Of a stretch of DNA of 37,157 nucleotides, positions 17,992 through 36,868 are shown piece by piece (within the stretch, counting starts at the first letter, position 1; every line of letters begins with the position of its first letter). The position numbers and the translations under genes were made by a program. The DNA lies in IMG/VR virus record IMGVR_UViG_3300035660_000041, positions 1 through 37,157 of that record; one strand, given 5' to 3'. The DNA is from a virus. The notes beneath the pieces are model-generated. The model was given only the letters and a program-made list of their open reading frames with translations, did not search any database and was not told where the DNA came from.

Positions 17992-18870
17992 CTACGTGAG
18001 GCTTGTCATCGTGCAGATCGCGTTGCTATCGTAAACCACAGGCAAACCACGCACATAGACTCTGCCAAACAGGTTGTTGCCTTCTTTAATGCTCAACGTT
18101 TCCGTTTCGGTGCTCAAGTCTTCTGCGACCACATATTCGAACATGCCTTCGGGATTCGTTTTTGACATCATGCCTGTTCCCGTTGCGAGCACTGGACTCA
18201 TGTAGACTTCGCCTTGGATGATCTCCTTTATCCATTGGAGATAGCTGACTGCAGTTCCTGAAACAAACGCAAGCGTGTACGCGTATTGTTCTGCTGGCAA
18301 CACCATGTTGTAGGGCGGCAGAATGTTATCTGTCATCAATTCGCTTATGGCGCCGTTGACGGTTATGGGAATGTTGGTTGCCGTAGCCCAGTCTGCACCT
18401 GCCTTGGTATTGTTTGCTACTTTGTAGAGGCCGTTGATCTCGTAGTTTGTGCCGTCAGCTGAGTAGCCCATGAGAAGCAATGCATCTTCCAGATAGGCTA
18501 CTTTGTAAGCTGCGCTTTCCGCCGTGGTCGTGTTGACGGGTACGCCTGTCATCTTGCTGCTTGCAACATCGAGTTTATTGATTTCAAATTCTTTATGCAG
18601 GTTTGGAATGCCCACAGTGCTTCGGGCAAAATTCAGGATGTCCAAGGATAATCGCCCGGGCCATATGAAGTCTAGACTTGCGTCGCCAACTTCTGTTCTG
18701 ACGTCATACCCGAATGTTTGGGCTCCACTGTCAATTTTGCGTATGGCGGTGCCGAATAGTTTTCTGCCTACGAATGCTCTTCGCGCTGCGGCCACTGATT
18801 GATCTCGGATGTATTGGCCTTGCTCAGTTGTCAATGGTTCGTCGCGTCCAACATATCTTAATGTGTTCAT
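17992..18870 (-). CDS. Major capsid protein, HK97 fold (encapsulin-like)
   Basis: 292 residues. The N-terminus SVAAARRAFVGRKLFGTAI, then SGAQTFGYDVRTEVGDASLDF, follows the pattern of encapsulin/linocin-type and related phage HK97-fold capsid proteins (an N-arm with A-x-x-A-x-x-x-x-x-G-R-x-L-F, then a beta region). The C-terminus (LFGRVYVRGLPVVYDSNAI) is the usual P-domain end. No N-terminal delta domain is fused; a separate scaffold gene lies upstream. Order scaffold-decoration-capsid is typical. Confidence 0.8.
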   Translation of the reverse strand: MNTLRYVGRDEPLTTEQGQYIRDQSVAAARRAFVGRKLFGTAIRKIDSGAQTFGYDVRTEVGDASLDFIWPGRLSLDILNFARSTVGIPNLHKEFEINKLDVASSKMTGVPVNTTTAESAAYKVAYLEDALLLMGYSADGTNYEINGLYKVANNTKAGADWATATNIPITVNGAISELMTDNILPPYNMVLPAEQYAYTLAFVSGTAVSYLQWIKEIIQGEVYMSPVLATGTGMMSKTNPEGMFEYVVAEDLSTETETLSIKEGNNLFGRVYVRGLPVVYDSNAICTMTSLT

Positions 18871-22726: not shown

Positions 22727-24121
22727 TTATTTGAATAGGAAGGCTATGTTGCCAGTGCCCTTCGCTACTACGTTGCTGACAACCATTTCCACACAGTCTA
22801 ATGCGTCGTCGTGGGCTCCTCGGGGGAATTGCACCCATTCAGTCCAGAACTCGCTGGTTGGACCCAACAGTAATGGGTTAACGTAGACTCGTTTGGCTTC
22901 GAAATGGCTACTCATGGGAATGAAGCGTTGTTCTTTGTTCTTGACTGTCTGTATGGGCACGATGGGTAGGTTCCGCATTTCTTGGACCATGGTTAAGATT
23001 TTCTGCCAGAAGTTTGTTTCCATGTAGATCTTTTGGTAATGATATGTCGCGTTCAGTTGAGGTAAGACTTGTTTGAGGATCTCAGGGAAAGGTTTGTGTT
23101 GGGCCCACACGTCTTTCAGATATCCTAATCCTCGGAGTTGGTCCCATGCAAGTGTGGCTATGCCGAAGTAGTCTCCTTCTCCCAGTGAAGGATCAACCGC
23201 CGCATAATTGGGCAGGTGCGAAGCCGGGTTCCAAGAGCCCGTGTTATCAAGTTCTGTCCATGGATGCAGCCACTCAGCTTTAAGCAGATCTCCCTGCATG
23301 GTTGTCGGGTCGTTTTGGTATTGACAGTTGAAGAATATACTGCCGATTTCTTTGCGTCGTTCTTCCAGTTTGGTTAGGGTCCAGTAGTCTGACCAGAGTG
23401 CTGTGCCGTCTTGTTGGATGGCTTGTTTCACGTCGTGCGGCCATTTTGACAGGAGCTCCGCGTATATGTCAGCGTAACTCCAGCGGGTGCCAATGACTAT
23501 TATCCCGCCCCAAGGATAGAGCGTGGGATAAAGGACTTTGTTAAACCAAGTGTTGACTTTCTCGAGTTGCAACGGCGTCCTAATGTTTTCTTCGTCTATG
23601 ATGTCATCGCAGATTATGAGGTCGCTGCGTCCACCTGTTATGGGACCCATGAGACCTGTTGCTTTCAATGTAGGGTTTTTGCTGATTTCACCGCGGACTA
23701 CTATCAGTTCTTTGCCAGTCCATTTCTTCGGGTCAGCGGGTTTGAGTTTGCCGAATATGTTGCGGTACCGGTCGTCAACTTCAATTCTTGTGATGAGGGC
23801 TGTCAGAATCTCTTCGGCCAGGCTTGCGGTCTTCGTGACTATGTTAACGTGCAAGTCTGGATATCGGCCTATCATCCAGCTTACATAGTTGATTGGCGTG
23901 CATTCCGTTTTGCCGTGTCCTCGAGGCCATTCTTGGTGTATTCGCTTTTCTTTGGCGGGTTCGGTTTTGAGTGGGCTGAACTTGTTTTGTAGGTAACTAT
24001 ACCATTCAATGTGGAAAGGCGCGTTCTTATAGCCTAAGTGTTCAGTGAAGATCTGAAGGTTTTCTTGCGCCCTTTGAATCCAATAATCGTGCAGCACGGT
24101 CAAGGATTGATTTTTCATCAT
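22727..24121 (-). CDS. terL: Terminase large subunit (packaging ATPase-nuclease)
   Basis: 464 residues. ATPase: Walker A EWPRGHGKTE (residues 64-73), Walker B DLIICDDIIDEE (167-178), coupling motif VIGTRWSYADIY (209-220). RNase-H-like nuclease: YAAVDPSLGEGDYFG (D310), IYMETN (E368), HDDALDC (D438/D439). All expected motifs are present, so it should be active. It overlaps the small subunit gene by 80 bp; a TTG a few codons downstream could be the real start. It pumps genome DNA into the prohead with the portal. Confidence 0.92.
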   Translation of the reverse strand: MMKNQSLTVLHDYWIQRAQENLQIFTEHLGYKNAPFHIEWYSYLQNKFSPLKTEPAKEKRIHQEWPRGHGKTECTPINYVSWMIGRYPDLHVNIVTKTASLAEEILTALITRIEVDDRYRNIFGKLKPADPKKWTGKELIVVRGEISKNPTLKATGLMGPITGGRSDLIICDDIIDEENIRTPLQLEKVNTWFNKVLYPTLYPWGGIIVIGTRWSYADIYAELLSKWPHDVKQAIQQDGTALWSDYWTLTKLEERRKEIGSIFFNCQYQNDPTTMQGDLLKAEWLHPWTELDNTGSWNPASHLPNYAAVDPSLGEGDYFGIATLAWDQLRGLGYLKDVWAQHKPFPEILKQVLPQLNATYHYQKIYMETNFWQKILTMVQEMRNLPIVPIQTVKNKEQRFIPMSSHFEAKRVYVNPLLLGPTSEFWTEWVQFPRGAHDDALDCVEMVVSNVVAKGTGNIAFLFK

Positions 24122-24455
24122 CCGTAAACACGTTTATGCTTATTTCTTCCTGAACCGACTTGGTTATTTCCTCTTTCACTTCACGTTTCTGAGTCACCAT
24201 ACGCGCCAGAATTCTGGTAAGTGCTTCAAACGCCACTCGATTGCTGACTTTCCGATATTTCTCTAGCCAAGCCTGTTTCAGCCACGCCTCGAAATCAGGA
24301 GTCTGAACCCACCGTTGCATTTTACGGTTGATTGTTTCTCTCCTAAGGCCCAGAACCATACTCATTTCAAGTTGGGTTTTGCCTTCCAGTAGCATGGGTT
24401 TGATTCTTTCGATGTCAGCTTGATCTTTAACTGTGAAGGTGAGGTTTTGTGACAT
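24042..24455 (-). CDS. terS: Terminase small subunit (HTH DNA-recognition protein)
   Basis: 137 residues. MLLEGKTQLEMSMVLGLRRETINRKMQRW is a helix-turn-helix, followed by a helical oligomerisation region and an acidic/basic coiled C-terminus (KREVKEEITKSVQEEISINV). Its location right before the large subunit and its size fit a terminase small subunit that recognises the packaging site. Confidence 0.75.
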   Translation of the reverse strand: MSQNLTFTVKDQADIERIKPMLLEGKTQLEMSMVLGLRRETINRKMQRWVQTPDFEAWLKQAWLEKYRKVSNRVAFEALTRILARMVTQKREVKEEITKSVQEEISINVFTDDEKSILDRAARLLDSKGARKPSDLH

Positions 24456-24461
24456 GGTTGA

Positions 24462-24644
24462 TCAGTTTGATTGGTCCCATCCGCGTGTTTCCATTAGGCC
24501 TAGGAAGAAGATTGTGGCGCCGTAGGCTATGAGTGTGGAGAGGATGTATGGAGTTGCGATGTTTAGAATTATGAGTAGGGTACAGATGAAGAGTAGGGCG
24601 AATGCTAAGGCTAGGATAAGTCTTGCTAATTGATTTCTGGTCAT
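24462..24644 (-). CDS. Small two-TM membrane protein (holin-like)
   Basis: 60 residues with two hydrophobic helices (about 7-29 LARLILALAFALLFICTLLI and about 31-50 TPYILSTLIAYGATIFFLGL) and short polar ends. No clear ribosome site; it starts 9 bp after the previous stop. Size and topology resemble class II holins, but no endolysin was recognised nearby, so this could also belong to the membrane-protein module upstream. Confidence 0.5.
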   Translation of the reverse strand: MTRNQLARLILALAFALLFICTLLIILNIATPYILSTLIAYGATIFFLGLMETRGWDQSN

Positions 24645-24653
24645 TGTGAATTG

Positions 24654-24857
24654 TCAAGAAGTTAATTGATAATTAGGGGCCGTGTTTGTTGCGGCGACTA
24701 CAACAGGATAGTATGGGATCCAAATCCAGATGGGTGGATAGTATGGTTCTGGAACGTAATAATTGCGGTTGCCAGTGTTATTCTTACACGATTGACAAAG
24801 CCAACCGTAGGAGCTGCATTTCTCTTTGAAGAGACAGATCACATCACACAAATTCAA
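24654..24857 (-). CDS. Small Cys-rich protein with aromatic/Pro tail
   Basis: About 67 residues from TTG 24857, preceded by AGAGGTCA. N-terminal Cys pattern C-x3-C-x5-C-x6-C-x2-C (CDVICLFKEKC ... CQSC) suggests a zinc site; the C-terminal half is rich in Tyr, Pro and Trp (YYPPIWIWIPYYP), possibly interfacial. The 150 bp upstream (24858-25009) hold only a GGACCCG direct repeat and no gene. Start uncertain. Confidence 0.45.
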   Translation of the reverse strand: MNLCDVICLFKEKCSSYGWLCQSCKNNTGNRNYYVPEPYYPPIWIWIPYYPVVVAATNTAPNYQLTS

Positions 24858-25009
24858 TGACCTCTATATCCGTTATTGTGAATTGTCAGGGGTCCGATTT
24901 GGTGTAGATATTTTTGAAGAGAGAAGTGTTATGCTATCCCTTTGAACAAAAGAGGGACCCGCGTCGGACCCGTGACTTTGATGTTAGGCTTATATGGTGC
25001 TGGGGTCAG

Positions 25010-25444
25010 TCACCCTATGAACCAAAGGTCGAAGTCTCCAGTTGTTGTGCCGCCTATGAGGTTGGGAGGAATAGCCACCAGATTGACTGTTTGAGATCCT
25101 CCAATTGGGAGGCTTCCGTTTCCAACTATGGTGACGGACCACCCGACAGGAACGAATGTTGTGTTGAGACTGGTGTTGAGGATTATGTTGCCAGTGTTTC
25201 TAATGACTATGCCGACGGTGAATTGGGTTCCGGTCCAACTCCAGAGACTGGTGATCTCTTCGCCGTTTGAGATGGGTGTTACGCCGTCGTTTCTGAATAG
25301 GGACATGCCGGGGCTGGCTGGCACTGTGAGATTCTGATGCACCATATAATAATTAACGCCAAGAGCGATGCCGGCAGTGGCGATGATGACGCCAACTATG
25401 AGTACGAGTAGGGCTTTCGTGAGTTTGGGCATTTTCAGTTTCAC
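25010..25444 (-). CDS. Signal-anchored exported protein with Ig-like beta domain
   Basis: 144 residues from a GTG that overlaps the previous stop (GTGA). Basic N-terminus then one hydrophobic helix (LLVLIVGVIIATAGIALGV, about 12-30), so the rest is probably outside the cell. The exposed part is beta-rich (FTVGIVIRNTGNIILNTSL ... VTIVGNGSLPIGGSQTVNLV), like NEW3/CARDB-type archaeal Ig domains, with several N-x-S/T sites that archaea could glycosylate. Third of three such proteins in a row. Confidence 0.65.
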   Translation of the reverse strand: MKLKMPKLTKALLVLIVGVIIATAGIALGVNYYMVHQNLTVPASPGMSLFRNDGVTPISNGEEITSLWSWTGTQFTVGIVIRNTGNIILNTSLNTTFVPVGWSVTIVGNGSLPIGGSQTVNLVAIPPNLIGGTTTGDFDLWFIG

Positions 25445-25944
25445 TTGACCACCTCCACAAGATTGACCGGCGTGTGAGCCAGTTTGTCCATCAGTTCTTG
25501 ATTCGATTTCTTGAGGCGCTCGATTTCAGCCTCATAACTTGGAATAAGCGAATCGCCTTCCTGGAGTTTGGTTTCGGCTTCTGCAGCTCTCTGAGTCATC
25601 TCAGTTAATTGGCCTTTGAGACCTCCGACGGTTTTGGAAAGGTCTTCTTTCTGTGCCAGTAGACCGTTGATTTGAGTATTAGCGGCTGTCGTGAGGTTCG
25701 AGACCTGTTGTTTGGCTGAGGAGATTTTGCTCATGGCTGCTCCAGCGATAGCGGTAACGGATCCTCCGGCGGCAACCACTGTTGGAAGATTGGTTGACAC
25801 GTAGGTTTTGCCTTGTTCAAACAGACCGATCGCGGCGTCTGAATATGGTTTGGTCTGTTCAAACTGTCCCATGAAGAAAATAGCTGCCACTGCAGCACCA
25901 ATGACGATGGTTGCAATAGCCAAGATTTTGGTGAGGCGATTCAT
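25441..25944 (-). CDS. Membrane-anchored coiled-coil protein
   Basis: 167 residues. N-terminal hydrophobic helix (KILAIATIVIGAAVAAIFF, about 6-24), a second weaker hydrophobic stretch (TVVAAGGSVTAIAGAAM, about 55-71), then about 80 residues of coiled coil (LLAQKEDLSKTVGGLKGQL, IERLKKSNQELMDKL). It could bridge membrane and virion or S-layer. Overlaps both neighbours by 4 bp. No family recognised. Confidence 0.65.
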   Translation of the reverse strand: MNRLTKILAIATIVIGAAVAAIFFMGQFEQTKPYSDAAIGLFEQGKTYVSTNLPTVVAAGGSVTAIAGAAMSKISSAKQQVSNLTTAANTQINGLLAQKEDLSKTVGGLKGQLTEMTQRAAEAETKLQEGDSLIPSYEAEIERLKKSNQELMDKLAHTPVNLVEVVK

Positions 25945-26336
25945 GTGGGACTCACTATTGGGGTGAATTTTGCGACTAGACTAAAGGAAACAGCAACCCG
26001 GAGCGCGTATGGATTGCTGCTGTATGGGATTCCTGAATTTGGCAGCCAAGCGTTGAATTTGTACCCGGTTTTTGCGGTGGCGTTGAAGGTCAGCATGTCG
26101 TTCGCTGTGCAGTTGAAACTGTAGGGCAGTTCTGTTAGAAGGACCAGCCAACTGCTTGCTGTATTTTGGTTTGTAACTGTGATGGATTGGAGGCCGACGT
26201 CGCTGTTGATGGTGACAGTTACTATTTTGCCGCTGGGGGGATTGGTGTTTCTGGGTCCAGCTGTCATGGCTGCGGCGGCGATTGCGGCCACGATTACTGC
26301 GATGAAAAGAATGATGATGATGGGTTTCAGTTTTAT
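25941..26336 (-). CDS. Signal-anchored protein with B-repeat-like beta domain; likely ATA start
   Basis: The first ordinary start in this frame is GTG 26291, which would cut the hydrophobic helix in half. Starting at ATA 26336, overlapping the previous stop (ATAA) and 5 bp after GGGGTGAGG, gives 131 residues with a full signal anchor (KLKPIIIILFIAVIVAAIAA). The exported part (TVTINSDVGLQSITVTN ... TGYKFNAWLPNSG ... FSLVAKFTP) resembles InlB-type B-repeat/Ig domains of archaeal surface proteins. Function unknown; likely on the cell surface or virion. Confidence 0.6.
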   Translation of the reverse strand: MKLKPIIIILFIAVIVAAIAAAAMTAGPRNTNPPSGKIVTVTINSDVGLQSITVTNQNTASSWLVLLTELPYSFNCTANDMLTFNATAKTGYKFNAWLPNSGIPYSSNPYALRVAVSFSLVAKFTPIVSPT

Positions 26337-26731
26337 GTTGCCTCACCCCCCTTCAGCGGTGGCAAGGGTTGAACGAGAGGATGGGGCATTGGCTTATTCA
26401 AGATGGGGAAGTTGTTTGGAGTTGCCATGGCCCGACTGTCGAATCGATAGATGCATTCGTCTTTGATGATTGTTGCGTCAAACTTGATTATGACTGTGTG
26501 GTTGAGGGTGGCCTTCCGTCCGGTGCTTTCTCCGTCGTTGGTTTCAGTGACCACGGTTCTGGCGATGACTCTTTCCTCCGGGTTGAAGTAGGTCCATGTC
26601 CCGATTTTTGAGAGTCGCCAGAGTTTGTTGAATTCTTCCTCTGTGAGAAGTTTCTCGGCGTCTTCTGTCTGGTACGCTTCTGTTGTTCCATCAATGACGC
26701 CAACGACGAACTCGCCGATTTTCATGGTCAT
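26333..26731 (-). CDS. Protein of unknown function after the GTPase
   Basis: 132 residues from the ATG overlapping the GTPase stop (ATGA). Mixed alpha/beta: DAEKLLTEEEFNKLWRLSKI, then GTWTYFNPEERVIARTVVTET and a beta strand region to DECIYRFDSR, ending in a Pro-rich tail (NKPMPHPLVQPLPPLKGG). No membrane segment, no Cys pattern. Translational coupling suggests it is a partner of the GTPase; nothing else can be said. Confidence 0.55.
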   Translation of the reverse strand: MTMKIGEFVVGVIDGTTEAYQTEDAEKLLTEEEFNKLWRLSKIGTWTYFNPEERVIARTVVTETNDGESTGRKATLNHTVIIKFDATIIKDECIYRFDSRAMATPNNFPILNKPMPHPLVQPLPPLKGGEAT

Positions 26732-27810
26732 GCACTTGCGGCGAAATTCCGCAACCAATCAAGAATACGGAAGTATGTACCTTCGCTATAGCTGATCTTT
26801 CTGAGGTTATGGCGCCATTCCTCGCTAAGTCTGTTGATTTTTCTGGGTTTGATCTTTGGGGAGTCTGGTTCTTCAGGCCAGCACACCGGTTTGCCTTGAG
26901 CGTTTGTCTCTACTTCAAAAAAGCTGGGGAAGAACTGAACGTTCGGCACTCGGAGGGACACGATTGCGGCGTAGGTTGCCGGGAAGCAGGATGCAACGAA
27001 GTCCTGGAGATCGTTTTGGGCTACGTTCTGATCGATGATATTGAAGCCCATTTCATCTCCAACTTCTTTCTGGAGAATGTCTGAGGCAGTGATGACCACG
27101 GCGACGCCTCGGATTGGTCGGCTGCTTGGATTTGTCATTTTGTAGTTCAGAAGGGCCTCAAGGAGCCTGACCATGTTGACGTCTGGATCGCCGCTGAGGT
27201 GCTTATCCTTTTCTTGTTCCAACTGTTTCGAGAAGCCTTTAGCTCTGGTGCCTTTCAGGGCGATTATGAACCCGTCGCTTTCCCGCATGTACTCGATGAG
27301 GTTCCGGGCTTTCTGTTTGCTGTATTCTCCTATGTCCACGCTTCGAGCGATTGAGCGGATGCTTTGTTGGAGATCCTCGCCCGCAAGATCGCAGATCGGA
27401 AGCTGCAGGTATTTGTGCCAGATGGTTTGGCATTTACCAAAGGCCAGATTGATGCGTTTCTCCCATTCCAAGAGAAGACCGGACTCAGCAGCGAAGCCGG
27501 TGTATGCTTGTGTTTTTCTCGGGAAGTGACCGCCTCGAAGATCAGCTTTGTCCTGATGGATTTCGCTGTCGCCTTCAATGACTCGACAGAAAAATGGGTG
27601 GTCAGTGTTTTCTGTTTCTCTGACCAAGGTTTCGGCTGTCATTCCCAGACCGCCAACTATGGTGCTTTTGCCGGCGCCGACTGTGCCGATTAAAGCAATC
27701 CTAGATTTAGCTGGAAAAATGGTTGCTGGCATAGCTAAGATTCCGGTGCTCGGTCCTCGAGCAAGACCAGTCATCTCAGCTATGTCTTCGAAGATGTTGG
27801 TTTGACTCAT
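26728..27810 (-). CDS. TRAFAC-like GTPase (double-GTPase/DO-GTPase-like P-loop protein)
   Basis: 360 residues. P-loop GTVGAGKST (42-50); G-H-F-P-x-x-T (94-100) as switch-I-like segment; DLAGE (141-145) as G3/Walker B; FIIALKGT (181-188) and VVITASDIL (238-246) as the G4 strand with TASD in place of NKxD. The order L-x-G-x-F-P-x-x-T then D-x-x-G-E is seen in the DO-GTPase-type families known mainly from NTP-dependent conflict systems. The C-terminal third is helical and basic. No membrane segment, but it follows a two-TM protein and precedes three exported proteins. A regulator or motor of a membrane assembly is the best inference; not a terminase. Confidence 0.6.
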   Translation of the reverse strand: MSQTNIFEDIAEMTGLARGPSTGILAMPATIFPAKSRIALIGTVGAGKSTIVGGLGMTAETLVRETENTDHPFFCRVIEGDSEIHQDKADLRGGHFPRKTQAYTGFAAESGLLLEWEKRINLAFGKCQTIWHKYLQLPICDLAGEDLQQSIRSIARSVDIGEYSKQKARNLIEYMRESDGFIIALKGTRAKGFSKQLEQEKDKHLSGDPDVNMVRLLEALLNYKMTNPSSRPIRGVAVVITASDILQKEVGDEMGFNIIDQNVAQNDLQDFVASCFPATYAAIVSLRVPNVQFFPSFFEVETNAQGKPVCWPEEPDSPKIKPRKINRLSEEWRHNLRKISYSEGTYFRILDWLRNFAASA

Positions 27811-28202
27811 GTCTTATTTTCTTCCGGTTTTGGTTGTGGAGATGCCACTGGAACTGGAGCTGGCTCTTTATACATGGTTGGCGTCGACAGGCCCTGTTGC
27901 GGTTGATATGCTGTTGTGAGGTTGACTTTGGCGCCGGTGATGTATCTGCGTTTTGCGAACAGGAAAGCTACGAAGAAAACGATTGCTACACCGCCCACGT
28001 AGAACGCGATTGTTTGGACAATCCCGGAGCCGGCCCAGGAGACCGGTGCCATTGTCCAAGCGATTATGGTGTCAGAGATGACGGTGAGGTCGACGAGTCC
28101 GATCATTCCGAGAATGATGACAATCAATATGATGATGATAGTTGCAATGATCACGTAGACGTAGAGAGGAACCGGAGGGCGATATTTTATGTACCCTGCC
28201 AT
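27807..28202 (-). CDS. Two-TM membrane protein with cytoplasmic Pro-rich tail
   Basis: 131 residues. TM1 about 13-34 (VYVIIATIIIILIVIILGMI), TM2 about 62-83 (IVQTIAFYVGGVAIVFFVAF), then FAKRRY, which puts the C-terminus inside, and a Pro/Gln-rich tail (KEPAPVPVASPQPKPEE). The ribosome site GGAGGTGAGATCAC is among the best in the genome, so it is probably made in quantity. Overlaps the GTPase start (ATGA), which suggests the tail may recruit the GTPase to the membrane. Confidence 0.7.
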   Translation of the reverse strand: MAGYIKYRPPVPLYVYVIIATIIIILIVIILGMIGLVDLTVISDTIIAWTMAPVSWAGSGIVQTIAFYVGGVAIVFFVAFLFAKRRYITGAKVNLTTAYQPQQGLSTPTMYKEPAPVPVASPQPKPEENKT

Positions 28203-28348
28203 TTTGTGATCTCACCTCCCGCGTCGCTTTTTTCGTCTTTTCTGGTTACTTTTATCTCGGCGTTCTCGAGTCCACTGTTCATCTTTTTGACGGAGCCAGT
28301 GCTCAATGTCTCTGCGCTGCAGATGAGTCTCACCTCGATTGGATTCAT
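28187..28348 (-). CDS. Small hypothetical protein (53 aa)
   Basis: The start is chosen at ATG 28348 because GAAGGA lies 8 bp before it. Mostly polar with an alternating beta-like segment (PIEVRLICSAETL) and a Lys/Glu C-terminus. Its 3' end contains the ribosome site for the next gene. No family recognised. Confidence 0.5.
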   Translation of the reverse strand: MNPIEVRLICSAETLSTGSVKKMNSGLENAEIKVTRKDEKSDAGGEITKWQGT

Positions 28349-28361
28349 CTTGTGAATCCTT

Positions 28362-28616
28362 CTATGTTCTCCCTCGATTGAGGACCTGACCATAAACTAG
28401 ATTGGCGAGAAAACGACCGAACCCTTCTCCTAGGTTTACGCGGACTTTTTCATAAACAATTTTTTCAGTGTTTTGAGTGTGAACAATCTCTCCGTTTATA
28501 GGGTCATGGAAGCTGTAGGCCAAAGTGAAAAAGCGCTGGGCTTCGAGGTCTTGCTTTCGGGCGAGGCGTCTTTCGTGTCGTCTTTGCATACTTTCAGGGC
28601 TTCGACGATGCGCCAT
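28362..28616 (-). CDS. Small basic protein, first gene of the late operon
   Basis: 84 residues from ATG 28616. Very basic N-terminus (HRRSPESMQRRHERRLARKQ), then an amphipathic region (FFTLAYSFHDPINGEIVHT) and a helical C-terminus (GFGRFLANLVYGQVLNRG). An RNA- or DNA-binding role is possible. Being first after the promoter, it is expressed with the whole late unit. No family recognised. Confidence 0.5.
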   Translation of the reverse strand: MAHRRSPESMQRRHERRLARKQDLEAQRFFTLAYSFHDPINGEIVHTQNTEKIVYEKVRVNLGEGFGRFLANLVYGQVLNRGRT

Positions 28617-28688: not shown

Positions 28689-28768
28689 GACTTGTGCGCA
28701 TTAACTAAACATTCCATACTTACCAGACGAAGACAGGCTCTGGCCTCTAGGGTATCTGAGGCAAATTG

Positions 28769-28776
28769 TTATATTA
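28769..28776 (+). promoter_or_regulatory. Probable TATA box of the integrase gene
   Basis: TTATATTA centred about 30 bp before GTG 28803. This is the spacing expected of an archaeal leaderless or near-leaderless transcript and decides the start chosen for the integrase. Confidence 0.5.
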
Positions 28777-28802
28777 TGTGTGGTGTGTCTTGTTTTTGGG
28801 GA

Positions 28803-29978
28803 GTGAGTGTTGTGGATTGGAGGCGGCGGTATGAGTATGGTGTGGGGCGGGCGGAGGTTGACGAGTTTGTTAATGGCAATACTTGTGTGAAGCAGTTTTT
28901 GGGGAAGTACGCGGAGTCAACCAAGTATACTTTCAGCAGGTATTTGTGCATGTTTTTCAAGTGGATGCAAATGCGTAAGGGTCTATCGCTGAAGCCAGGG
29001 GAGTTTCTGCAGTTGCTATCTGAGAAACGATTAAGCAAGATCGTTGAGGACCGGTGTTGGGGCCGCAACCTTGTTTTGGAGTTTACCCGGGATAATCCGG
29101 ATTTGAAAGGTAAGTCTCATGCTTTGCTTTATGGTGCCATGTTCAAGAGCGTGAACTTGTTCTGTAAGGCCAATGAAGTTGAGTTGACTAGCGCACGCGG
29201 GGTTTATGGCGTGAAGAGACACCGGAAGTATCGGCCGGATCCTTACACTGTTGCGTTGGCTAGGAAGGTTTTGGGCGTGTTGAATCAGAGGGACCGAGCG
29301 ATCTGCATGTTAGGTCTGCAGACTGGCCAGAGCGTGATGCAAGTCCTGAATAATATTAATGATCAGTATGATTACATAGTACGAATGATTAGTCAGGGCA
29401 AGAAACGGATCAGGTTTGATTTTGAGGAGCGCAAGGGCAATGGTTTTCGCTATTATAGTTTCTGTTCGATTGACGCAATAACAGAGATTCAGAAGTGGTT
29501 GCCCCTCCGCAAGAAATGGCTGAAGGATAAAACGAGCCCTTACCTGTTTATCAAACGGGATGGATCGAAGTTGACGCCTGACGTCTGGAGAAGTCCCTTC
29601 CGAGAACGCCTCGAAAGACACGAAGTATACAAGGGACCTTACAGCGTGATTTTTCACATGTTCCGCAAAATCTTCGAATCAGAAGCGAGCCCTCCGGACA
29701 GAGGAATCAGCAAGGATTACGTGCGGTTCATGATGGGCCACGCCGTCGACAAAGAAGACCTAGACCAGTTGGATATTCCCGGGGGTACATATGATCAGGC
29801 GCCGTTTACCCATCCGGATGCGGTTGAACGGGAATATGCGAAGTTGGAGCCGTACATTAACGTTTATACGGGAAGACCGCCGGGACAATCGGAGGGGGAC
29901 ATCGATGAGGAAGACATGGACACACTGAAGGAGTTATTGCAGAAATTGAGAGAAGGCAAAGTCAAATTCGAACAGTGA
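28803..29978 (+). CDS. int: Tyrosine recombinase (integrase), first catalytic Arg not visible
   Basis: 391 residues if started at GTG 28803 (GTG 28812 is also possible; the frame is open further upstream to TTG 28692 but that would lie before the TATA box). An N-terminal SAM-like DNA-binding part is followed by the catalytic domain: Lys in FEERKGN (about K211), H-x-x-R in IFHMFRK (about 285-288), MGHAV (about 311-315), and Tyr candidates at about 345 and 351. The position of the first Arg, normally T-G-x-R, reads LQTGQSVMQVLN, so it is Gln/Ser here. Would insert the virus into the host chromosome. Its 3' end overlaps the convergent gene by 17 bp. Confidence 0.75.
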   Translation: MSVVDWRRRYEYGVGRAEVDEFVNGNTCVKQFLGKYAESTKYTFSRYLCMFFKWMQMRKGLSLKPGEFLQLLSEKRLSKIVEDRCWGRNLVLEFTRDNPDLKGKSHALLYGAMFKSVNLFCKANEVELTSARGVYGVKRHRKYRPDPYTVALARKVLGVLNQRDRAICMLGLQTGQSVMQVLNNINDQYDYIVRMISQGKKRIRFDFEERKGNGFRYYSFCSIDAITEIQKWLPLRKKWLKDKTSPYLFIKRDGSKLTPDVWRSPFRERLERHEVYKGPYSVIFHMFRKIFESEASPPDRGISKDYVRFMMGHAVDKEDLDQLDIPGGTYDQAPFTHPDAVEREYAKLEPYINVYTGRPPGQSEGDIDEEDMDTLKELLQKLREGKVKFEQ

Positions 29979-31725: not shown

Positions 31726-31955
31726 TCGAAGTTGACATGCAAGTTAAAGCGCATAGTAGCGGTGAAACTGACGAAAAAGACGAGTGGTTCAGTGTTACCC
31801 TGGTAGGTTCAAGCACCGCCCTCCTCGAAGTATCCAACTTTAAACTGACATTGAAGAGCGAGAAACAATCATTGTTCGCCTCGTATCCAATCGGCAAAAT
31901 GGTGTCCTTGAAGCTTCATGATCCTCAACGAAAACTGACGGAGGGCCCTAGATGA
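31722..31955 (+). CDS. Small beta-rich protein (77 aa)
   Basis: GTG start overlapping the previous stop. Alternating strands (IEVDMQVKAHSS, EWFSVTLVGSSTALLEVSNF, KLTLKSEKQSLF) suggest a small beta barrel or a single-strand-DNA-binding-like fold, but no family could be named. Coupled to the repeat-bearing gene downstream by an ATGA overlap. Confidence 0.55.
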   Translation: MIEVDMQVKAHSSGETDEKDEWFSVTLVGSSTALLEVSNFKLTLKSEKQSLFASYPIGKMVSLKLHDPQRKLTEGPR

Positions 31956-32779
31956 ACAGATATTATAAGTTGGCTAGACCTGACGGCTTCGACTTTCATA
32001 CAGGCCGTACAATCAATTATCGTGAGAGTATCGGCAAAACAGTGAAGTGCCCCAAGCCGAAGCGTCACTTTGAGAATTGGCTGAAAACCACTGATCTTTG
32101 CAGTGACACTGTTCTTCATGCATGCGTAAATCCGAATGACTGTTTTGTCGCCGCAAAAATGCCGTGCAGCGCCTACATAGTCGAAGGAAAACCAGTGGTG
32201 AAAGATGAAAACAAATGTGGTTTCAAGAAGTTTTTTGTAGTGGAAGAGATCCCGCAGGAGAACCTGGACGAAGTTTTCGGCTGGAAATACAGTGAAACAT
32301 GCGATCCATTAAACCCGTTCAAAATCAGGGCACCTAGGATGATCACTAATGTACAGATTGACCTTTTGCGGAACTGGGCTTCAGTCAGGGGTTCAGTCTG
32401 GGCTTCAGTCGGGGATTCAGTCTGGGCTTCAGTCTGGGCTTCAGTCAGGGATTCAGTCTGGGCTTCAGTCGGGGCTTCAGTCTGGGCTTCAGTCAGGGAT
32501 TCAGTCGGGGCTTCAGTCTGGGCTTCAGTCTGGGCTTCAGTCAGGGATTCAGTCTGGGCTTCAGTCAGGGATTCAGAAGCTGCCTACATCGGAACGCTGT
32601 TTCCTTCAATCAAAAAATGGCAGTACATCAACCATGACGAAGGTATCTATCCATATCAGTCATGCATCGATCTCTTGCGCCAAGGTCTAGTTCCATCATA
32701 CGAGAGAGAAAAATGGCGGTTGCATGCTGGACCCGACGGGCATGTTGTCTATGAGGTAGCAAGGACGGATTTGAAATGA
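31952..32779 (+). CDS. Protein with 16 tandem SVxx tetrapeptide repeats
   Basis: 275 residues. The N-terminal domain (PDGFDFHTGRTINYRESIGK, then CPKPKRHF, LCSDTVLHACVNPNDCFVAA, PCSAYIVEGK, KCGFKKFFVVEE) has six or more Cys and His and a regular spacing that suggests a folded metal-binding unit. Residues about 143-207 are a run of Ser-Val-Trp-Ala, Ser-Val-Arg-Asp and related tetrapeptides encoded by 12-bp units. A C-terminal domain (GTLFPSIKKWQYINHDEG ... SCIDLLRQGLVPSYE) closes it. Similar SVxx arrays occur in other hypothetical viral or microbial proteins by memory; function not known. Followed by ATGA overlap. Confidence 0.65.
   Translation: MNRYYKLARPDGFDFHTGRTINYRESIGKTVKCPKPKRHFENWLKTTDLCSDTVLHACVNPNDCFVAAKMPCSAYIVEGKPVVKDENKCGFKKFFVVEEIPQENLDEVFGWKYSETCDPLNPFKIRAPRMITNVQIDLLRNWASVRGSVWASVGDSVWASVWASVRDSVWASVGASVWASVRDSVGASVWASVWASVRDSVWASVRDSEAAYIGTLFPSIKKWQYINHDEGIYPYQSCIDLLRQGLVPSYEREKWRLHAGPDGHVVYEVARTDLK
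32380..32576 (+). repeat. 16-copy 12-bp in-frame tandem repeat (TTCAGTCnGGGn)
   Basis: Sixteen exact-length units from 32380 to 32571 plus a partial unit. Ten of the twelve bases never change, synonymous positions included; only the first base of codon 3 (T, A or G: Trp, Arg, Gly) and the second base of codon 4 (C, A or G: Ala, Asp, Gly) vary. Order of codon 3-4 pairs: RG WA GD WA WA RD WA GA WA RD GA WA WA RD WA RD. All three plus-strand frames are open through the array. Confidence 0.95.
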
Positions 32780-36247: not shown

Positions 36248-36868
36248 ATGGATACCGCGAAGTTGCTAGACCTTTGTTGTGGGCTAGGCGGATGGAGTAT
36301 AGGCTTCTATAGGGCAGGGTTTGACTGTACTGGCGTGGACATTCTTGACATTGGATATCCATATAAACTTGTGAAGATGGATCTCAAAGATTATCATCCG
36401 AATGAAGCTTTTGACGTTGTCGTTGCATCTCCTCCATGCACTGAATTTAGCACAATGGTCCGTCTTGCAGTCAGTAGAAGCCAACGTAAACCTGCAGACC
36501 CTGCTAAGGGCCTAGAGCTTGTCAAAGAAAGCATAAGGATAATTCAAGAGGTAAACCCGAAGTTTTGGGTATTGGAAAACGTGCAAGGCTCACTGCAACA
36601 TATTCAGCCATTGCTGGGACCGCCTGAAGTAATCATCAAGCCTTGGTATCTATGGGGAAAATTACCGCCGTTTCTGTTTCCGCAATCAAACTTTCCGACG
36701 AAAACAGATTTTCCAGTCGGCTCAGTTCGTGCTAAAGCGCACGATCAGTTAAACTCGGTCTTCGCGTTCAATCCATTGCGTTCTTTCTTTCGGGCAAAAA
36801 TTCCCCTTCCCCTCTCAGTTCCCCTTGGCAAAGCATGCTATGACAAACTAAAGGAGGAATCCTCTTGA
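36248..36868 (+). CDS. Short C5-cytosine methyltransferase-like protein
   Basis: 206 residues. Motif I LDLCCGLGGWSIGFYRAGF with CTGVD, motif IV SPPCTEFS with the catalytic Cys (C64), motif VI FWVLENV (residues 107-112). Motif X-like LGKACYDKL is at the end. The Q-x-R-x-R motif VIII and a normal target-recognition domain are absent; only about 70 residues lie between motif VI and the end. Such short forms occur in viral genomes and may modify DNA for protection or act on nucleotides. The stop overlaps the ATPase TTG start, with AAAGGAGGA just upstream. Confidence 0.75.
   Translation: MDTAKLLDLCCGLGGWSIGFYRAGFDCTGVDILDIGYPYKLVKMDLKDYHPNEAFDVVVASPPCTEFSTMVRLAVSRSQRKPADPAKGLELVKESIRIIQEVNPKFWVLENVQGSLQHIQPLLGPPEVIIKPWYLWGKLPPFLFPQSNFPTKTDFPVGSVRAKAHDQLNSVFAFNPLRSFFRAKIPLPLSVPLGKACYDKLKEESS

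What the first reader, a model, noticed from the sequence alone, without database searches (positions are those of the whole stretch)
24462..28616. GTPase plus membrane-protein module inside a viral late operon
A TRAFAC-like GTPase with DO-GTPase-like motifs is translationally coupled to a two-TM protein (cytoplasmic Pro-rich tail) and to a partner protein, and is followed by three proteins with N-terminal signal anchors: a B-repeat/Ig-like one, a coiled-coil one and an Ig-like one. A small two-TM and a Cys/aromatic protein follow, then the terminases. Nearly all overlap by 4 bp, so they are made as a set. Such GTPases are known mainly from host conflict systems and not as usual parts of a head-tailed virion. 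The set could be an envelope-spanning device for virus exit, superinfection exclusion or surface remodelling. Seen: order, overlaps, motifs. Inferred: joint function.
Basis: partly seen in the sequence, partly recalled or inferred. Interest (0 to 1): 0.7.

Follow-up and report, generated by a model that had tools for sequence, protein, structure and literature searches.

The report
Viral GTPase switch with membrane partners
Tailed viruses, probably of Bathyarchaeia (soil and sediment archaea), carry a compact swappable gene cassette in which a GTPase and its partner, until now described only as the core of a bacterial immunity-like system, sit beside membrane proteins just ahead of the DNA-packaging genes; it may be the switch that opens the cell envelope for virus exit.

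Summary
The 360-aa protein is a TRAFAC GTPase homologous to bacterial DO-GTPase1 (profile-profile probability 97.5, P 5e-12; 100 shuffles score far lower). The unnamed "partner" directly downstream is homologous to GAP1-N1, the N-terminal domain of GTPase-associated protein 1, which follows DO-GTPase in bacteria (probability 94.4, P 9e-8). Its AlphaFold model has the strand-helix order of longin domains, a fold of GTPase regulators. The order (small basic protein) - 2TM/Pro-rich - GTPase - GAP1-N - 2TM/coiled-coil - TM/Ig-like recurs in 25 loci (24 virus contigs, one Bathyarchaeia genome contig), upstream of the terminase wherever one is in view. It occurs with at least three terminase types; between two viruses with unrelated terminases the block is alike (GTPase 87% identical) and homology stops just before the packaging genes. 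So it is a self-contained, exchangeable cassette. The GTPase core is constant and membrane parts diverge fast. Correction: the coiled-coil protein has two TM segments, so its coil probably faces the cytoplasm. Function is inferred: a membrane-bound GTP switch acting late on the envelope, most likely for exit; superinfection exclusion or defence against other viruses come next. The held literature library reports no viral DO-GTPase/GAP1 pair.

The parts
28362..28616 (-). small basic protein ('a93'; first gene of the block in most copies; unknown function; also present in relatives that lack the GTPase, so it may not be essential to the module)
   Evidence: Profile built from 12 copies hits nearly all loci upstream of the 2TM gene; also seen in L034, which has no GTPase
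27807..28202 (-). two-TM protein with Pro-rich C-terminal tail, predicted N-in/C-in (tail cytoplasmic)
   Evidence: Two hydrophobic segments and a tail of 7-17% Pro in 12 aligned copies; upstream of the GTPase in nearly every locus; no Pfam match above threshold
26728..27810 (-). DO-GTPase-like TRAFAC GTPase (360 aa); G1 GTVGAGKS (K48), G3-like DLAGE (E145), G4 TASD (D244)
   Evidence: DO-GTPase1 match in 7/13 homologues, best 3.9e-7; hhalign to bacterial DO-GTPase1 prob 97.5, P 5.1e-12; AF2 pLDDT 78.5, TRAFAC fold; K48, G144, E145, D210, D244 invariant in 25 loci
26333..26731 (-). GAP1-N1-like GTPase-associated protein (132 aa from ATG; longin-like model), near-invariant Arg at codon 26516-26518
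   Evidence: hhalign to bacterial GAP1-N1 prob 94.4, P 9.3e-8, 109 columns, score 47.9 against at most 14.9 for 100 shuffles and 16.1 for unrelated profiles; detected directly downstream of the GTPase in 24/25 loci; AF2 core pLDDT above 90, Foldseek longin matches
25941..26336 (-). N-terminally anchored B-repeat-like protein, if started at ATA 26336; otherwise 116 aa from GTG 26291 without the TM
   Evidence: Flg_new_2 / InlB B-repeat E 0.0018, below the curated cut-off; upstream TM in frame; homologue with TM in L003
25441..25944 (-). two-TM hairpin protein with ~100-aa cytoplasmic coiled coil and a conserved basic C-terminus (xVxK)
   Evidence: 11-copy alignment, two hydrophobic segments in every copy; profile hits in most loci
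25010..25444 (-). N-terminal TM anchor plus Ig-like domain, predicted outside; least conserved component in the closest pair
   Evidence: Single TM and N-X-S/T sequons in most of 10 copies; 39% identical between L122 and L123, whose GTPases are 98% identical
24654..24857 (-). Cys/aromatic-rich 67-aa protein, uncertain member
   Evidence: Homologue in L011 lies upstream of the GTPase
24462..24644 (-). small two-TM protein, uncertain member; small TM proteins occur at similar places in several relatives
24042..24455 (-). terminase small subunit (neighbour, not part of the cassette)
   Evidence: HTH-like; homologues upstream of TerL in relatives
22727..24121 (-). terminase large subunit (neighbour; the cassette lies upstream of it)
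   Evidence: Weak Pfam terminase matches; 50-72% identical homologues in 30 virus contigs

Best explanation
It is a streamlined, membrane-tethered version of the DO-GTPase/GAP1 switch, carried as an exchangeable cassette in the late operon of tailed viruses that probably infect Bathyarchaeia. Proposed mechanism: the GTPase works at the cytoplasmic face of the membrane, held by the Pro-rich tail of the two-TM protein and/or the coiled coil of the other two-TM protein. The longin-like GAP1-N protein regulates it, perhaps as a GTPase-activating partner through its near-invariant arginine. The GTP state controls assembly or opening of the membrane proteins, and the anchored Ig/B-repeat proteins contact the S-layer or cell surface. 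Because it is co-directional with the structural genes and no lysis gene was recognised elsewhere in the window, the most likely role is timed breaching of the envelope for virion exit. Shown: family kinship of both core proteins, fixed order, block exchange, constant core against variable membrane parts. Inferred: membrane topology, late expression, Arg-finger role, exit.
For: Kinship of the GTPase and of the partner, with the same GTPase-then-GAP1 order in bacteria (PMC7159879). TRAFAC fold. Partner model beta-beta-alpha-beta-beta-beta-alpha(-alpha); most Foldseek hits of probability 0.75 or more come from longin-containing complexes (Lst4, SEA, FLCN-FNIP2, GATOR1), a fold that supplies arginine fingers in GTPase-activating complexes (PMC8213707). 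Arg aligned in 23/24 viral and 4/4 bacterial sequences. Order conserved in 25 loci; two-TM cytoplasmic-tail topology. Block shared between viruses with unrelated terminases, with homology ending just before TerS/TerL. No holin, endolysin or protease recognised among the genes scanned. Archaea lack peptidoglycan, and no holin gene had been identified in isolated archaeal viruses as of 2015 (PMC4456609).
Against: No direct evidence for exit. Many window genes have no family match, so an unrecognised lysis gene could lie elsewhere. Viruses with 49-51% identical terminases do without the module, and one with 66% (L032) also shows none. The window copy has TASD instead of T-K-x-D and some copies have S for G in the P-loop, so nucleotide specificity is uncertain. 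The longin match has E 0.02-0.1 and modest TM-scores. The comparison of what occupies the same genomic slot in relatives is anecdotal (one subtilase, small TM proteins).
Confidence: 0.45

Rival explanations
1. Superinfection exclusion or surface remodelling: the cassette changes the host surface late in infection or in lysogeny, with the Ig-like and B-repeat proteins as surface markers and the GTPase controlling their deployment.
For: The Ig-like part is 39% identical in a pair whose GTPases are 98% identical, as expected for a surface-facing specificity part; integrase-like gene next door on the other strand.
Against: Sits with packaging genes, suggesting late rather than lysogenic expression; exclusion systems are usually one or two genes, not six (general knowledge).
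Confidence: 0.2
2. A virus-borne conflict system against competing viruses: the DO-GTPase/GAP1-N switch senses another invader and triggers membrane effectors.
For: The only described relatives are predicted conflict systems with the same GTPase/GAP1 core, variable parts and membrane effectors (PMC7159879); en-bloc exchange.
Against: GAP1-M, GAP1-C, EAD and GASH parts were not seen in the viral modules; a fixed place in a late operon of nearly all members of a virus group is unlike an accessory defence cargo; membrane proteins are homologous across copies rather than swapped.
Confidence: 0.13
3. Virion morphogenesis: the GTPase and its membrane partners tether or time head assembly or packaging at the membrane.
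For: Upstream of terminase wherever a terminase is in view; co-directional with portal and capsid genes.
Against: Occurs with at least three terminase types, and viruses with 50% identical terminases lack it; block exchange stops before the packaging genes, so it does not co-evolve with them.
Confidence: 0.1
4. Counter-defence decoy: a viral DO-GTPase/GAP1-N pair poisons a host GTPase/GAP1 conflict system.
For: Homology to the core of such systems with loss of GAP1-M/C.
Against: No DO-GTPase1 or GAP1-N1 match in 257 genomes of the presumed host class and only sub-threshold DO-GTPase2 matches, of which those examined were FtsY or ABC proteins; the empty answers have no positive control in that class. 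Membrane partners are unexplained.
Confidence: 0.07

Closest known systems
DO-GTPase/GAP1 GTPase-centric conflict systems, GAP1-N1 type (Kaur et al. 2020, PMC7159879)
   Same: DO-GTPase1-type GTPase with an AGE glutamate after the Walker B region, followed directly by a GAP1-N domain; membrane-associated components; constant core plus variable parts
   Different: Single GTPase instead of a DO-GTPase2/DO-GTPase1 pair; GAP1 reduced to its N domain (no M/C/EAD seen); no GASH protein seen; own 2TM/Pro-rich and 2TM/coiled-coil proteins; in archaeal tailed-virus late operons instead of bacterial chromosomes
GAP1-N2-type systems
   Same: Membrane-proximal, with extracellular beta-sandwich (FNIII) proteins, comparable in role to the viral Ig-like part
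Longin-domain GTPase regulators (NPRL2/NPRL3, FLCN-FNIP2, Lst4, SMCR8-C9orf72)
   Same: Partner model has the longin strand-helix order and a conserved arginine in a GTPase-associated protein
   Different: No sequence homology shown; Foldseek E only 0.02-0.1; known ones act as heterodimers in eukaryotes
Archaeal virus egress systems (PVAP pyramids; pseudomurein endoisopeptidase Pei)
   Same: Virus-encoded envelope-acting proteins made for release
   Different: No GTPase in either; unrelated proteins; egress role here is inferred only

Membership tests
DO-GTPase (PF19975/PF19993) | Sequence homology to the DO-GTPase family | tested here: met
   7/13 homologues match DO-GTPase1 (best 3.9e-7) and 4/13 DO-GTPase2; profile-profile P 5.1e-12, score 88.5 against at most 19 for 100 shuffles. 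The window protein alone is below Pfam's cut-off (16.1 against 27 bits), so it is a divergent branch.
DO-GTPase (PF19975/PF19993) | TRAFAC fold with conserved Glu in the Walker B region | tested here: met
   AGE glutamate (E145) invariant in 25/25 loci and in four bacterial DO-GTPase1; TRAFAC fold
DO-GTPase (PF19975/PF19993) | Two paralogous GTPases (in 38% of systems, PMC7159879) | tested here: not met
   One GTPase per module in all loci examined; not required by the definition
GAP1 (PF20012 GAP1-N1) | GAP1-N domain, encoded directly downstream of the GTPase | tested here: met
   Profile-profile prob 94.4, P 9.3e-8; detected downstream in 24/25 loci; no single member matches Pfam's model
GAP1 (PF20012 GAP1-N1) | GAP1-M and GAP1-C domains | tested here: not met
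   Partner is 110-140 aa and ends after the N domain in the viral copies; in L088 it runs further to the contig end
GTPase-centric conflict system (GAP1-N1 type) | GASH protein and variable effector/EAD modules | tested here: not met
   No such domains in Pfam scans of the module proteins; neighbours are viral structural genes
Longin-domain GTPase-activating protein | Longin fold | tested here: inconclusive
   Topology fits; Foldseek probability up to 0.98 but E 0.02-0.1 and TM about 0.4
Longin-domain GTPase-activating protein | Arginine finger stimulating hydrolysis | not testable with these tools
   Arg conserved; function needs biochemistry
Holin / lysis cassette | Membrane pore formation causing release | not testable with these tools
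   Only two-TM topology and late-operon position are known

The most novel reading that the evidence does not exclude
A GTP-gated exit machine of tailed archaeal viruses: a DO-GTPase/GAP1-N switch that times envelope opening through two-TM cytoplasmic-tail proteins and surface-facing Ig proteins. It would be the first GTPase-controlled virion-release device of a prokaryotic virus known to me, and it would suggest that the DO-GTPase/GAP1 core of bacterial conflict systems is at bottom a membrane-acting switch.
Probability: 0.35. Interest if true: 0.88.

Novelty: new variant of a known kind. Interest (0 to 1): 0.7.

Why it matters
How tailed viruses leave archaeal cells, which have no peptidoglycan, is poorly understood, and no holin had been identified in isolated archaeal viruses as of a 2015 review (PMC4456609). 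DO-GTPase/GAP1 systems were predicted from genomes as bacterial conflict systems. A reduced, fixed-order viral version joined to membrane proteins gives a small set that can be expressed and assayed, and offers a view of what the GTPase/GAP1 core does. It also suggests a GTPase/longin-like regulator pair in archaeal viruses, comparable to the GTPase/longin logic of eukaryotic cells.

Tried and rejected
Single-protein scans for the GTPase in viral and genome contigs and among phages found nothing; the terminase gave the relatives instead. Housekeeping GTPase: rejected, no match above threshold to any other GTPase family. Known phage family: rejected; the BFVD structure library returns mainly giant-virus GTPases as significant hits. 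SLATT-type pore for the two-TM proteins: no Pfam match; coiled-coil hits to scaffold, tropomyosin and spanin are composition-driven. Pfam did not recognise the partner in any of 12 members; only profile-profile comparison did. DO-GTPase2 hits in Bathyarchaeia: those examined were FtsY and ABC ATPases. A single profile of all 13 GTPases was too diverse for pattern search. First shuffle run timed out, repeated with 100 shuffles. Promoter/terminator scan and Rfam gave nothing usable.
Full report
SETTING. The window is a virus record with integrase-like, portal, HK97/encapsulin-like capsid and terminase genes. The structural genes and the finding lie on the minus strand; the integrase-like gene at 28692-29978 is on the plus strand. 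The nearest terminase in a cellular genome is 66% identical, in a Candidatus Bathyarchaeota MAG (L032), and a Bathyarchaeia-class genome contains the start of the same module on a 3-kb contig (L088). The host is therefore probably Bathyarchaeia; this is inference.

THE SET IS REAL. Using the terminase as bait, then profiles of each module protein, then GTPase clade profiles, I found 25 loci including the window: 24 virus contigs and one genome contig. The recurrent order is a93 - 2TM/Pro-rich - GTPase - GAP1-N - 2TM/coiled-coil - TM/Ig, followed by terminase and portal where the contig extends that far. The GAP1-N gene was detected directly downstream of the GTPase in 24 of 25 (L004 lacks it). 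Not every locus has every other component detected: the coiled coil, Ig and a93 profiles miss some. Of loci with terminase above about 58% identity and enough upstream sequence, 16 of 17 have the GTPase; the exception is L032. Seven loci with terminases of 49-51% identity do not have it.

WHAT THE GTPASE IS. The window protein alone is sub-threshold to DO-GTPase1 and DO-GTPase2, but 7 of 13 homologues match DO-GTPase1, best 3.9e-7. Profile-profile comparison with four bacterial DO-GTPase1 proteins gives probability 97.5, P 5.1e-12, score 88.5; 100 column shuffles reach at most 19 and the reversed profile 15. Lys48 of the P-loop, the Gly-Glu of the AGE motif, Asp210 and Asp244 are invariant in 25 loci. 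Kaur et al. define DO-GTPases by a conserved Glu in the Walker B motif (PMC7159879). The AlphaFold model (pLDDT 78.5, pTM 0.80) matches TRAFAC GTPases, YcjX best. In the viral structure library the significant hits are mainly giant-virus GTPases.

WHAT THE PARTNER IS. No Pfam model matches it. Bacterial DO-GTPase1 genes are followed by GAP1 proteins whose first ~100 residues are Pfam GAP1-N1. The viral partner profile aligns with those over 109 columns, nearly full length: probability 94.4, P 9.3e-8, score 47.9; shuffles reach at most 14.9, unrelated module profiles at most 16.1. The shared features are Gly near the N-terminus, D...R...(N/H/S)(H/T)(T/S), and a C-terminal EP.(E)I-like end; the Arg aligns in 23/24 viral and 4/4 bacterial sequences. 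Homology of both neighbours, in the same order, is the strongest single point of this report. The partner model (core pLDDT above 90) has the order beta-beta-alpha-beta-beta-beta-alpha(-alpha); Foldseek matches of probability 0.75 or more are mostly from longin-containing complexes (Lst4, SEA, FLCN-FNIP2, GATOR1), but E-values are 0.02-0.1, so the fold link is suggestive only. Longin domains supply arginine fingers in SMCR8 and, by that paper's model, in FLCN and NPRL2 (PMC8213707); the viral Arg is a candidate for such a role (inference).

MEMBRANE PARTS. The 2TM and coiled-coil proteins each have two hydrophobic segments in every aligned copy, short neutral loops and mostly positive flanks on the N-terminal and tail side. 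The Ig-like protein has one N-terminal anchor and N-glycosylation-type sequons in most copies, consistent with the outside. The window's B-repeat protein reaches its TM only from an ATA or CTG start.

A SELF-CONTAINED CASSETTE. L122-L125 have terminases that the window-family terminase profile does not find anywhere in their records, and L126, L127 and L129 have very distant ones. Yet L020 (window-type terminase) and L122 share the block a93 71%, 2TM 74%, GTPase 87%, GAP1-N 80%, coiled coil 47%, Ig 70%, with similarity continuing through small genes and ending just before TerS/TerL. L010/L128 and L129 show a second case: GTPase 74% with terminases of different types. The cassette thus moves between viruses as a unit. 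Between L122 and L123 the GTPase is 98% identical, GAP1-N 96%, coiled coil 93%, 2TM 84%, but Ig only 39%. Across the pairs compared the GTPase is always the best conserved module member.

HOW IT MAY WORK. A GTPase switch in the cytoplasm, bound to membrane proteins by their cytoplasmic tails and regulated by GAP1-N, controls a late change of the envelope; the outer Ig and B-repeat proteins contact the cell surface. Exit is the best guess because the set is co-directional with the late genes, no lysis gene was recognised among the proteins scanned, and archaeal viruses need a non-peptidoglycan exit (PMC4456609). A weak supporting hint is that relatives without the module have other membrane or protease genes in the same slot (subtilase in L065; small TM proteins in L034, L060), but several other relatives do not. 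None of this is direct evidence for exit, and the probability given (0.45) reflects that. Kinship and module status are held at above 0.9.

NOVELTY. In the held full-text library, only Kaur et al. 2020 uses the names GAP1-N1/N2; the passages read describe cellular systems, not viral ones. A paper on 56 Bathyarchaeia viruses does not contain the word GTPase. The library lacks most subscription papers. A reduced, viral, membrane-coupled DO-GTPase/GAP1-N module is a new variant of a known kind.

Noticed in passing
window 17992-18870 (-): The major capsid protein matches the encapsulin family Linocin_M18 (6e-25) better than the phage Major_capside model (9e-9).
   Followed up: no
window 31952-32779 (+): 275-aa protein with about 70 residues of short repeats of the type SVWASVRDSVGASV, which may form a solenoid.
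   Followed up: no
L065:4036-5910 and L066:7736-8638: In viruses with distant terminases, a 624-aa subtilase (Peptidase_S8, 6e-20) and a 300-aa protein with a GHG motif lie upstream of the terminase, with small TM proteins nearby; they may be candidates for S-layer digestion.
   Followed up: partly
L088:2352-2996: The GAP1-N-like frame in the Bathyarchaeia genome contig extends beyond the N domain to the contig end, possibly a longer GAP1 intermediate.
   Followed up: no
window 26336-26330 (-): The B-repeat protein seems to need an ATA (26336) or CTG (26330) start to include its TM; ATA would overlap the upstream stop as ATAA.
   Followed up: partly
window 26728-27810, GTPase G4 motif: Five of 25 copies, the window's included, have Ala for Lys in T-K-x-D, and four have Ser for Gly before the P-loop Lys, suggesting subclasses with altered nucleotide handling.
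   Followed up: partly
window 36248-36868 (+): C-5 cytosine DNA methylase of only 206 aa near the end of the record (match to positions 2-117 of 324), perhaps split or partial.
   Followed up: no
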